Source of the DNA: Neofusicoccum parvum | Taxonomy: Eukaryota; Ascomycota; Dothideomycetes; Botryosphaeriales; Botryosphaeriaceae | Length of the DNA: 64,000 bases | NCBI GenBank assembly: GCA_020912385.1 | Contig: CP087206.1 | Location: 2,976,001-3,040,000 of the forward strand | Direction: 5' to 3' | Shown: piece by piece, positions 18,404-25,181 of the stretch | How the letters are laid out: each line of letters begins with the position of its first letter | Numbering within the stretch: position 1 is the stretch's first letter | Position numbers and translations under genes: made by a program | The notes under the pieces: generated by a model | The model's input: the letters and a program-made list of their open reading frames with translations, nothing else | Database searches by the model: none | What the model was told of the DNA's origin: nothing

Positions 18404-20368
18404 CTAATATCCACACACGAGGAGGTAAAACATGCTGGAGCCGGCAACCATGGCGCCAACAGATGCACAGAACCTCTCGACGCCGTAGCCCACGAACACC
18501 ACGCCCGCCAAGTACTTGGACACGGCGGCGCCCACCAGGGCCACCCACACGGCGACGCACAGCAGCGGGGCGAGGTTCTTCCTGAAGGCACGGCGCGGCA
18601 CGGCCTCGACCTTCTCGGGCGGACACTTCACGGGCGACCCCCAGCTGCCGTCCAGGAAGGTGGCACAGGCCCAGAACACGATGGGCGGCTGGGGGAACTG
18701 CAGGAAGACCTGGCTTGCGACGAGCCAGGGCCACAGGCGCGCGCTGCTGCTGCTGCTGCTGCTACCACCACCGCCGCCGGCAACACCAAGCTCACCCCGA
18801 TTCCTCCACAGAGTGTACGCCGAGCACAGCAAGATGCGGGCAGCGATATCAGCCGGGCTGGTGACGGCGGTGCCGCGGCCAGCGCAGAGATAGCGCACGA
18901 CGATCCAGGCCTGCAGGTATGGGCCAGCGACGCGGCGCAGGGCGTAGAGGGCGAGCACGGGGGAGCGGGCCACAAGGAGCGCGCGCGGGTGGGCCAGGGT
19001 CTCGAGCACGATGGCGCGGCTCCAGCGCACCTGCTGCACGACCCAGGCGGCCAGCGTGGCGGGCGCGTCCGTCAGCACCGTGGCCGCCGGGTTGAAGGTG
19101 ACCTTGTGGCCGCGCAGCAGCAGCCGCGTCGTCAGGTGCCGGTCCTCGTTGACCACCGGGCGCGCCCCGAGGAACGTCTGCGCGTGCCACGGCACCAGGA
19201 TCGAGGCGAGCGCGGCGGCGCGGAACGCCGCGCAGGGCCCTGGCTGGCAGTCGGTCACGTCGAAGGCGGAGTTCTGGCCCGAGGTGAGCGAGAGGTCCGT
19301 CCAGTAGGTGGCGGCGACCAGGCGCGTGACGGTGCTCTGGGCGGCGTTGTGGATCTGCAGCGCGCCGCAGGACCCGGCGATGCGGTCGTCGGCGCTCATG
19401 GCGGCGAGCACGCGGTGGATGGGCGCGGCCGGCGTGTGCAGGATCGAGTCGGAGTCGGACGACCAGATGAAGGGGAGGTTGTTGGCGCGCGCGAGGGCGA
19501 GGGTGAAGAGGAGGCTGCTGAACATGATCTCCTTCTTGGAGCGGTGCGGCTGGCACACGCAGATGGGCTGGAGCGCTCTGCCCGGCGTGTGGTGCAGCTG
19601 GCCGCAGTCCTGCAGGATCGAGGTGGCCTGCCGGACGAGCACCTCCAGGACGTGGTCGTGGCACTCGTCTTCGCTCACGTCGCGGCCCTTCTTCTGCTCG
19701 AGCCGGTCTCTTTTCCAGTCGCTGATCATGCGGGTCGCCGTCTGCCCAAACGGCTCGTGGAGCGGGATCGTGGGAGTGTTCTCCACGCCGAACACCTGGT
19801 CGCTGGGTTAGCTGGACGGTGTCATGCCGATAAGGTGCCATCTCGGAGCTGAGGGGACGGGCCGCGCAGGGCAGACACTGAGCAGGAACACTGCCTTCTG
19901 CACGCTTTTCTCGGGATGCTGACTGCTCGTGGCCGGAGCAAGACGCAGACGTACCTTCTCGGCCATTGCAATCATCTGCATGTCCTCTGCCTCGTTGCCG
20001 TCGATGCCAACCACAAGGACGCGGGCTGCCCGGCTGGTGTCGTCGCGGTAGCTCTCCAGGCATCTGCGGAAGATGGCCGGGTCCTCTCTGTATCCTATCA
20101 CCGCGCCCACACATTCGGTGCGCCTTGAAGCCTCTTCTCCCAGCTCTTCGACGTCTTGGCTTTGCTGTTCATATTGGCGGTACCGTCGCGCCTGCTTTCG
20201 GCGGTTGACTTCGGAGAAGATTATCTGCAACACACCCTCGATGAGGAGCGGGAAGCCATATGTGTACCGTGCAACAACGTTCAAGACGACCAGTAGACTG
20301 ATGATCAAAGAGAATGCCCGCAGAATCAATGTTGGTGTCTCGTAGGACCGCAAGGCCCTGCGGAACAT
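18404..20368 (-). CDS. processive family-2 glycosyltransferase, hyaluronan/chitin-synthase-like
   Basis: Exons are 20368-19955 and 19795-18404 with a 159-nt intron (GTACGT...CAG), giving 601 residues. Two N-terminal membrane helices (about 14-50) precede the GT-A catalytic part: GAVIGYRED (substrate entry), a DSDS metal-binding motif near 252, GSCGALQIHN, the acceptor or catalytic-base region NEDRHLTTRLLLRGHKV near 354 and the processivity motif QQVRW near 392-396. Four or more helices follow up to the C-terminus. Spacing and residues resemble class-I hyaluronan synthases, chitin synthases and NodC. It should polymerise an N-acetylhexosamine-containing chain from UDP-sugars at the plasma membrane and extrude it. 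A GGGGGSSSSSSS linker is encoded by a CTG/GCT-type microsatellite at about 18745-18780. It is divergent from the CE4 deacetylase and close to an acyltransferase, suggesting joint work. The product sugar is unknown. Confidence 0.9.
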
Positions 20369-20926
20369 GACTGAGGCAGCTTGGGGAAGGAAAGTAAAAA
20401 CACGCGCTGGCCGACATACTACCTAGGTGCCATGTCGGAACAATAAGAGGCAGGAGAATTTCGGCACTGGGCCATGTTCGGGGCAGGCAATTCGACAAGG
20501 CGTGCTCAATCCCAACCCTACTACCCTGGAGCCCAGCCTGGATCGTACTGCTCTTGCCGACGCGGACAGCGCTTCGCCGGTTCGAGAGCTACTATACGTG
20601 CTTGGATACGAGACGCCCAGCTGTCAGGTTCTCTTAGGTCTAGGCTCCGGGCTGCAACGTCCGATGGTGCGGCTGATGGTTCGGCGGCTTTAACCTTATT
20701 GCGACTCATGGCAGCGTAGAACCAAGCTAGAGGATTGGGTAGCAGCACAAGCTTCGGCGCTTTGACGCCTTACCCGGTGGCGTTTGAAACCCGCCAAGCG
20801 TCTCTCTCAGCTGGCGGTCTATCCAAAGCTGACGATTCCGCTCCGAAATAAAGTGCTGGTCGTACGAGCACCGGTCTTTCGTCTTCACTTGCCAAGTTGC
20901 CTACATTCCCTACATTCCGCAGCACC
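20369..20926. promoter_or_regulatory. shared divergent promoter of the GT2 and CE4 deacetylase genes
   Basis: A gap of 558 bp separates the two start codons. It holds CGG/CCG triplets that Zn2Cys6 proteins could bind, but I did not find a clear paired site. No gene is seen inside. Confidence 0.45.
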
Positions 20927-23653: not shown

Positions 23654-23906
23654 GGGGTGGGCGAGCTGTTCCGTTGTATATCCGCTCTTGTCTGCTCCGT
23701 GCCTGTATAACTCATATCGGTAAGCTCATGGACATGTTGAATGAAATTTATAAGTCAAAACTAAAATCACGTTCACTTTTTTCTTTCTTTCTGGGATAGA
23801 CTCATCCAATGTGGAGAGAAGTATAGGTGCCACGTTATGATCTATAGCTCTACCAAAGCCAATTCAAACAGGAAAAGATAGGAAAGCTTAGACTCTTTCA
23901 TGTGCG

Positions 23907-25181
23907 TCATATCCCATTGATGACATCCTGCATTTCGACAGCCTTTATCAACTCCGGCGTGATCAATCCAGCTTCAGTGCACGACTTGTGCGCTTGTTGC
24001 AGACGTTCAAGCATCAGCGAGCTGACCTGAGCAACGAGCGCTACTTCCAGGCCCAGACCCTCGATTGCGCAGAAAGATCCGAGATTGAGGTGCCAAAAGA
24101 CGCGCCTGGTGCTTGCCTGTGGCGGCAAAAGAGAGTACTGCTCCAGGTCACAGTGGAAACTCTCGTACAGCCGCGAAAGGTAAACATGGCAGGTAAGAAA
24201 CATCAGAACCACCAAAATGTCAACGTTTGATGATCTAGTTGCCGAGTCGAAAGAGGATACTCTCGAGCTGTTGACGCAAGGGGAGCTGTCCATGCTCGGG
24301 GGGTCTGGATGATCCGAGTTGACAGGCAACGTCGACGTGCAGTGAGACAGTGGTAGACTCTGTGTGCTGTTTATTGTTGAAATGTTCTCGAAGTGGTCAA
24401 TGGACAGCTCGCTGGGTGTGCAAAGCATGGGCTGGCCGGTTTCCTCTGGTGACGAGTCGAAGCGTGCGAGCCAAATTGGATTTCCGGCAACTTCTTCGAC
24501 AATTGAAACGAGCTTCTGGGTGCTTTCGAAGATGCTCTCAAGAGGAAACTCTTGCAGTCTTGAGAGCAATGAAGTGTCTTTTCTGCGCCTCTCCACAGTG
24601 TTCAGCTGGCGATGGAGCAGCAGGCTGAGGGATGTAAGCTGTTCAGCGAAGTCCTCCGGGTCTCTGTCGAAGATGAAGTCTTCCGGTGTGAACTCCTTGG
24701 TATCAGGCACTCCACTAAAGACTTCAGACAAGCTCTCCGGAGCTACTCCATGGATCATTGTGGAATGAAGTAGCGGTGGGTCATCGACATTTTCCAGGAA
24801 GGTAAAGTCGTGCGTAAAGTTGGCATCTTTCTCGGTCTGCGGCGACTCCTGGCCCGTGACAAGCTGTGGCGGCTCAACCACCAGAATATGAGAACCTTGT
24901 AAAGCCGTGTCACTTGGTGTGCGCATCTGCAATTTCGAGAGTCTACGCCTGTCCCGAGACGGGCGTCCGATACGACACGGAGGACTGTAAACGCACTCAG
25001 CAGACATACGCAAGCAGCGATCGCAGTCATGGCCGTTTGGAGATGTTGTACGTAAGCAGCGTAGCTTTTTAGAGTGGCACCGATCGCAGGCCAGCCGACG
25101 CCGGGGTCCAGATTCGATTTGCTTCTCAATTTGTGGGTTTGGAGATGATGATTGAGTGGAAGACATGGCTCTGGCTTGCAT
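23907..25181 (-). CDS. Zn(II)2Cys6 transcription factor, AflR-like
   Basis: From the first ATG at 25181 the protein has 424 residues; a second Met at 25166 is possible. The binuclear zinc cluster lies near residues 30-65: CDRCHSKKLRC, a long loop, then CDRCLRMSAEC, giving C-x2-C-x6-C...C-x2-C-x6-C, preceded by basic residues. A Ser/Thr-rich linker follows. The C-terminal 110 residues (DILVVLMFLTCHVYLSRLYE ... LVAQVSSLMLERLQQAHKS) resemble the C-terminal domain of aflatoxin-type regulators. Such proteins usually control the gene cluster beside them, so the GT2/CE4/AT3 genes are the first candidate targets; that is inference. A TATATAAAA element (25215-25223, minus strand) lies about 34 nt upstream, implying a very short leader. 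Confidence 0.87.
   Translation of the reverse strand: MQARAMSSTQSSSPNPQIEKQIESGPRRRLACDRCHSKKLRCLRTTSPNGHDCDRCLRMSAECVYSPPCRIGRPSRDRRRLSKLQMRTPSDTALQGSHILVVEPPQLVTGQESPQTEKDANFTHDFTFLENVDDPPLLHSTMIHGVAPESLSEVFSGVPDTKEFTPEDFIFDRDPEDFAEQLTSLSLLLHRQLNTVERRRKDTSLLSRLQEFPLESIFESTQKLVSIVEEVAGNPIWLARFDSSPEETGQPMLCTPSELSIDHFENISTINSTQSLPLSHCTSTLPVNSDHPDPPSMDSSPCVNSSRVSSFDSATRSSNVDILVVLMFLTCHVYLSRLYESFHCDLEQYSLLPPQASTRRVFWHLNLGSFCAIEGLGLEVALVAQVSSLMLERLQQAHKSCTEAGLITPELIKAVEMQDVINGI

What the first reader, a model, noticed from the sequence alone, without database searches (positions are those of the whole stretch)
18404..25181. A compact fungal locus with synthase, N-deacetylase and O-acyltransferase: NodC/NodB/NodX-like logic
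Seen: a processive GT2 enzyme (QQVRW, DSD, NEDRHLT), a CE4 deacetylase with all five motifs, an AT3 membrane acyltransferase and an AflR-like Zn2Cys6 regulator, all within 7 kb. Known: in rhizobia, NodC makes a chitin oligomer, NodB deacetylates it and AT3 proteins such as NodX O-acetylate it; many fungi make lipo-chitooligosaccharides, and genes for fungal pathways are poorly defined. Bacterial exopolysaccharide loci use the same trio. Inferred: this is a dedicated fungal cluster for a deacetylated, acylated amino-sugar polymer or oligomer. No NodA-like N-acyltransferase is seen, so a polysaccharide is as likely as a lipo-oligosaccharide.
Basis: partly seen in the sequence, partly recalled or inferred. 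Interest (0 to 1): 0.88.

Follow-up and report, generated by a model that had tools for sequence, protein, structure and literature searches.

The report
Conserved fungal cell-surface sugar-polymer gene cluster
A grapevine-trunk fungus carries neighbouring genes that look built to make a sugar chain, strip acetyl groups from it and add acyl groups to it; some related fungi keep these genes on one piece of chromosome, and the product is unknown.

The parts
18404..20368 (-). hyaluronan-synthase-like processive GT2, 601 aa; exons 20368-19955 and 19795-18404
20369..20926 (.). 558-bp divergent region between GT2 and CE4; no Zn2Cys6-type site above chance
   Evidence: sequence; motif counts against shuffles
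20927..22105 (+). CE4 chitin-deacetylase-like enzyme with an N-terminal hydrophobic stretch (likely membrane anchor, inferred from the sequence); exons 20927-20994, 21053-21126, 21219-21507 (alternative acceptor 21180), 21570-21624, 21689-22105; 300 aa
   Evidence: model; Pfam; closest solved: C. lindemuthianum chitin deacetylase 2iw0, 1.3e-33; motifs
22409..23653 (+). AT3 (Acyl_transf_3) membrane acyltransferase, single exon, 414 aa, R-x10-H in the first helix
23907..25181 (-). Zn2Cys6 transcription-factor gene, 424 aa, convergent with AT3; membership in the cluster not established
   Evidence: Zn_clus over cut-off; frame; no linkage data

Best explanation
The locus makes and tailors a surface or secreted glycan. 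Shown: three adjacent, intact enzyme genes whose orthologues lie on one contig in another genus. Inferred: the GT2 polymerises an N-acetylhexosamine (most likely GlcNAc) from UDP-sugar on the cytosolic side and extrudes the chain through its own membrane channel, as hyaluronan synthase does. The anchored CE4 removes N-acetyl groups on the lumenal or outer side. The AT3, with acyl-CoA on the cytosolic side, acylates the exported chain (O-acylation, or N-acylation of the freed amines). The product would be a partly deacetylated, acylated amino-sugar polymer in the hyphal coat or matrix. The Zn2Cys6 protein may regulate it (not shown). The locus is one of five loci with this GT2 type in the genome, with different neighbouring modifier genes (CE4+AT3; Fringe-like; Fringe-like+AT3; none noted at C2).
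For: Linkage: GT2 P0003, AT3 P0042 and CE4 P0061 of Diplodia corticola all on a 159,497-base contig; GT2 P0009 and CE4 P0062 of Corynespora cassiicola on one of 482,245; GT2 P0032 and CE4 P0064 of Phaeosphaeriaceae sp. PMI808 on one of 114,226; N. parvum GT2 and AT3 on one of 954,347 in another assembly. The linked CE4s fall in one clade (8 rows 93/87; 9 rows with Cercospora 99/97); 7 of 7 aligned members (P0058-P0064) share TFDD[F/N] and LxH[G/A], 0 of the 31 other aligned rows do. D. corticola's AT3 groups with the window's in a 6-row set (86/78), apart from the C17 paralogue. Second GT2-AT3 pair at C15. Fringe-like partners at C8, C10, C15. HAS-like fold over residues 24-555 of the orthologue model. 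CE4 catalytic residues kept. AT3 fold like HGSNAT, which acetylates glucosamine across a membrane (that function is recalled).
Confidence: 0.62

Rival explanations
1. The GT2 is a true hyaluronan synthase using UDP-GlcA and UDP-GlcNAc, and the locus makes a modified hyaluronan.
For: Fold and sequence are closest to hyaluronan synthases; the Lys of QPHxxK, the acceptor-site Cys and the Arg of QxxRW line up with those of Chlorella virus HAS (my mapping; roles from passages of PMC12987647 and PMC11750622); three UDP-glucose-dehydrogenase-like genes exist in the genome, so UDP-GlcA may be at hand. One of them (C14) lies about 3 kb from another CE4 gene.
Against: The HAS motif GDDR is NEDR in 31 and NDDR in 4 of 35 aligned relatives, GDDR in none; the gating-loop motif WGTSGRK/R reads WGSPVK in the window. 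None of the dehydrogenase-like genes lies near the five GT2s of this type; two of the three sit beside other GT2s, the third beside a CE4 and a GH18.
Confidence: 0.12
2. A fungal Nod-factor-like pathway: the GT2 makes short chitin oligomers, CE4 deacetylates one end, and AT3 or an unlinked enzyme N-acylates it to a lipo-chitooligosaccharide.
For: The NodC curated model is the best NCBIfam match of the GT2 (1.8e-28 for P0002); chitin synthase, chitin deacetylase and N-acyltransferase are named as the minimum set for fungal LCOs, whose synthesis route is called open (passages of PMC7403392); the AT3 fold resembles an N-acetyltransferase of glucosamine.
Against: Curated NodC and NodB cut-offs missed by a wide margin; the CE4 resembles fungal chitin deacetylases; the GT2 has a HAS-like membrane domain expected of a polymer exporter; no NodA-like gene found, though that search had no positive control. 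LCOs are reported from 53 of 59 fungal species tested (start of abstract of PMC7403392), while the 13-row clade of the window's GT2 holds only what I recall as Dothideomycetes.
Confidence: 0.08
3. The three genes are neighbours by chance or loosely linked; the CE4 is an ordinary chitin deacetylase and the AT3 belongs to another pathway (for example with the flavin-monooxygenase-like gene at 15.7-17.8 kb).
For: AT3 and Zn2Cys6 genes are common in fungal metabolite clusters (recalled); the genome has at least 10 CE4 and 11 AT3 loci; no shared promoter motif above chance; in M. phaseolina MS6 the CE4 and the one listed GT2 (of another clade) are on different contigs.
Against: Simulated chance 3e-5 for the trio and 6.5e-5 for two or more GT2-AT3 pairs; trio on one contig in D. 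corticola and GT2-CE4 on one contig in two Pleosporales.
Confidence: 0.18

Closest known systems
Bacterial exopolysaccharide loci (synthase + CE4 deacetylase + AT3 acyltransferase; recalled)
   Same: the same three activities side by side
   Different: fungal genes, two of the three with introns; HAS-like synthase; nearest solved sequence relatives of GT2 and CE4 are eukaryotic or of an algal virus; no bacterial relative of the GT2 confirmed in one narrow motif-based scan
Rhizobial nodC-nodB-nodX (Nod factor synthesis; pathway recalled)
   Same: GT2 / CE4 / AT3 logic; NodC is the best NCBIfam match of the GT2
   Different: NodC and NodB cut-offs not met; no NodA found (no control); HAS-like membrane domain
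Class I hyaluronan synthase (Chlorella virus HAS, Xenopus HAS1)
   Same: near full-length fold, DxD and QxxRW motifs
   Different: NEDR for GDDR, no WGTSGRK/R; no UDP-glucose dehydrogenase gene near this GT2 type
Aspergillus galactosaminogalactan cluster (recalled)
   Same: a fungal cluster pairing an amino-sugar polymer synthase with a deacetylase
   Different: recalled as a GT4 synthase and a CE18 deacetylase, no AT3; unrelated enzymes
Fungal Cps1/ZtGT2 family
   Same: membrane GT2 of fungi with unknown polysaccharide product
   Different: [quoted passage not shown] this GT2's model has a larger C-terminal membrane part, and it is a weak PF13632 match compared with other GT2s of the genome

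Membership tests
NodC chitooligosaccharide synthase (TIGR04242) | score at or above the curated cut-off of 550 bits | tested here: not met
   99.6, 85.5 and 92.7 bits for P0002, the window exon-2 frame and P0003
NodB chitooligosaccharide deacetylase (TIGR04243) | score at or above the curated cut-off of 240 bits | tested here: not met
   40.9 and 56.0 bits for P0058 and P0061; the spliced window model itself was not scanned
Nod-factor pathway | NodA-type N-acyltransferase (PF02474) in the genome | tested here: inconclusive
   0 matches in G000, but no control genome rang either
Class I hyaluronan synthase | HAS fold including membrane domain | tested here: met
   [not shown]
Class I hyaluronan synthase | GDDR motif | tested here: not met
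   0 of 35 aligned relatives; NEDR 31, NDDR 4
Class I hyaluronan synthase | gating loop WGTSGRK/R | tested here: not met
   WGSPVK in the window; only WG kept
Class I hyaluronan synthase | uses UDP-GlcA and UDP-GlcNAc | not testable with these tools
   needs an enzyme assay
Fungal chitin synthase | chitin-synthase fold and signature (QxxRW in PMC5122149 passages; QRRRW recalled) | tested here: inconclusive
   [not shown]
CE4 (NodB-homology) deacetylase | motifs MT1-MT5 with catalytic Asp, His-His-Asp metal triad and catalytic His | tested here: met
   TFDD, HTYDH, RAPY, DTEDW, LMH (motif definitions from passages of PMC5855634; the sequence form of motif 5 is recalled)
AT3 acyltransferase (PF01757) | curated cut-off; R-x10-H motif (recalled) | tested here: met
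   72.3 bits against 31; RGIASVIVALNH
Cps1/ZtGT2 family | orthology to Cps1 | tested here: inconclusive
   no Cps1 reference sequence at hand; topology of the model differs from the published description

The most novel reading that the evidence does not exclude
The locus is an anabolic fungal pathway for a Nod-factor-like acylated chitosan oligomer or polymer, giving a first gene set for fungal lipo-chitooligosaccharide-type molecules, and one branch of a modular family of HAS-like glycan loci (CE4+AT3, Fringe-like, Fringe-like+AT3) in Botryosphaeriaceae.
Probability: 0.08. Interest if true: 0.92.

Novelty: new variant of a known kind. Interest (0 to 1): 0.62.

Why it matters
As far as I know (recalled), HAS-like GT2s of filamentous ascomycetes have no established product. 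A conserved neighbour set that names the chemistry (N-deacetylation, acylation) narrows the product to an N-acetylhexosamine glycan and gives three deletable genes to find it. How fungi make lipo-chitooligosaccharides is stated as open (passages of PMC7403392). The five loci in one genome suggest that fungi may diversify surface glycans by pairing one synthase type with different modifier genes.

Tried and rejected
Zn2Cys6-type sites (CGG pairs, AflR-type half sites) in four intergenic regions are no more frequent than in dinucleotide-preserving shuffles. AflR family for the regulator: only Zn_clus listed at E up to 5. Bacterial or viral relatives of the GT2: 57 pattern matches in genome contigs and 6 in viral contigs, none confirmed by tblastn; a narrow scan with two motifs. 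A GT2-AT3 fusion at C15 was considered because the frames are in phase; rejected, since stop codons lie between and AT3 has its own ATG 219 bp after the GT2 stop. Co-duplication of the GT2-AT3 pair: not supported, since the window AT3's closest paralogue is at C17 (61%), where the genome-wide GT2 search has no match. CE4 near C2, C8, C10, C15 (GT2s) or C17 (AT3): no tblastn match at E 1e-2 in the ten fetched 10-kb stretches. My first idea that every UDP-glucose dehydrogenase gene goes with another GT2 did not survive checking: a third one, at C14, lies by a CE4 and a GH18 with no GT2 noted in the frames scanned, and the fourth PF03721 match (C15:88132) is a 3-hydroxyacyl-CoA dehydrogenase. Eight literature searches bearing on the question showed no title or abstract start describing a fungal GT2-CE4-AT3 locus; they cover open-licence papers only, and long lists were cut (for example 15 of 2,067, 15 of 156). 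A ninth was for HAS structures. Not done: expression comparison, glycan analysis, gene order in other fungi (no fungal contig collection is held). Selections: of the 120 CE4 hits listed (2983 passed), I aligned 38; of 38 GT2 hits, 35 in A1 (P0004, P0035, P0038 left out) and 32 in the tree; of 19 AT3 hits, 17 in A3 (P0039, P0055 left out, the window AT3 added) and 12 in the tree.

Full report
What is there. The window lies at C1:2976001-3040000 of a 44.0-Mb, 18-contig genome. The GT2 is listed as 100% identical over 83% of its length to a Neofusicoccum parvum protein and the AT3 as 98%, so the organism is N. parvum or a very near relative. GT2 (601 aa, one intron) and CE4 (300 aa, four introns, with intron 2's acceptor uncertain) are divergent across 558 bp; AT3 (414 aa) follows CE4 by 303 bp; a Zn2Cys6 gene is convergent with AT3. 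Neighbouring frames with Pfam matches over cut-off include a flavin-monooxygenase-like gene (NAD_binding_8; 15.7-17.8 kb), an aromatic amino acid lyase (29.3-31.2 kb), diphthamide synthesis, HMGL-like, a methylguanine methyltransferase domain and SART-1. No further glycan gene was noted among the frames scanned; the stretch 25.2-29.3 kb was not scanned with Pfam.

Linkage elsewhere. The protein database gives no context, but it reports the length of the contig that holds each protein. Comparing the three lists (38 GT2, 19 AT3, 120 of 2983 CE4 hits): Diplodia corticola has GT2, AT3 and CE4 on a contig of 159,497 bases; Corynespora cassiicola has GT2 P0009 and CE4 P0062 on one of 482,245; Phaeosphaeriaceae sp. 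PMI808 has GT2 P0032 and CE4 P0064 on one of 114,226; another N. parvum assembly has GT2 and AT3 on one of 954,347. The shared contigs outside Neofusicoccum would be about 0.3-1.4% of a genome of 35-45 Mb (sizes assumed). Against this, Corynespora's other GT2 (P0008) is on a different contig, and M. phaseolina MS6 has its CE4 and a GT2 of another clade on different contigs. For the other species the lists cannot tell.

Trees. Window GT2, D. corticola P0003 and Corynespora P0009 fall in one 13-row clade (100/99) of what I recall as Dothideomycetes; PMI808's linked GT2 is in a distant clade with Aspergillus and Xylaria-like proteins (37 rows). The linked CE4s fall in one clade: Botryosphaeriaceae 98/97, Pleosporales 100/100, joined at 93/87, and at 99/97 with a Cercospora protein (39 rows). 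Its 7 members without Cercospora and the window share TFDD[F/N] and LxH[G/A]; the 31 other aligned CE4s, Cercospora's among them, have G and D/E at these places. This clade-specific change with kept catalytic residues suggests a special substrate (inference). D. corticola's AT3 groups with the window's, with modest support (86/78).

The same genome as control. The genome holds five loci with this GT2 type: window, C2, C8, C10, C15 (a sixth, weak match at C7 is a longer frame of another kind). C15 has an AT3 219 bp downstream on the same strand. C8, C10 and C15 each have, divergent from the GT2 and with first ATGs 1.0-2.4 kb away, members of one Fringe-like (GT31-like) family (C8-C10 47-49%, C15 34-38% identical). 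C15's falls below the Pfam cut-off and was recognised by similarity to the other two. Genome-wide Pfam finds 4 Fringe-like loci, two of them these. C2 showed no such partner in the frames scanned and no tblastn match. Chance under uniform placement: 6.5e-5 for two or more GT2-AT3 pairs and 1e-5 for two or more GT2-Fringe pairs within 5 kb, which ignores gene clustering in general. So the window locus looks like one variant of a family of synthase-plus-modifier loci.

Comparison with Nod genes. The logic is the same, membership is not: NodC and NodB cut-offs are missed by large margins. The absence of NodA is untested in practice. Oligomer or polymer is undecided; the HAS-like channel favours a polymer.

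Verdict. Real and conserved in part; interpretation partly supported; new variant of a known kind. Eight searches of an open-licence library showed no title or abstract start describing such a locus.

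Noticed in passing
L016:4132-5379 (C8), L018:2759-3925 (C10), L013:5963-7213 (C15): Three paralogous Fringe-like (GT31-like) proteins with an N-terminal hydrophobic stretch, each divergent from a HAS-like GT2 paralogue: a recurrent pair in one genome.
   Followed up: partly
C5:967744-969816 (L027, L028) and C1:2109921-2114522 (L029) of G000: Two UDP-glucose dehydrogenase-like genes lie beside GT2 genes with Chitin_synth_2 matches, candidates for a glucuronate-containing glycan.
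   Followed up: partly
C14:1509291-1515158 of G000 (L025:2291-8158): A CE4 deacetylase gene, a third UDP-glucose dehydrogenase-like gene and a GH18 gene lie within about 6 kb.
   Followed up: no
window 20927-22105; P0058-P0064: A CE4 clade with TFDD[F/N] and LxH[G/A] in place of TFDDG and LxHD/E, catalytic residues kept.
   Followed up: partly
C12:1562130-1564874 of G000: Two divergent AT3 genes about 0.6 kb apart, seen in the genome-wide AT3 lists.
   Followed up: no
window 29299-31170 (-): An aromatic amino acid lyase gene (Lyase_aromatic, 451.7 bits) lies about 4 kb beyond the regulator.
   Followed up: no
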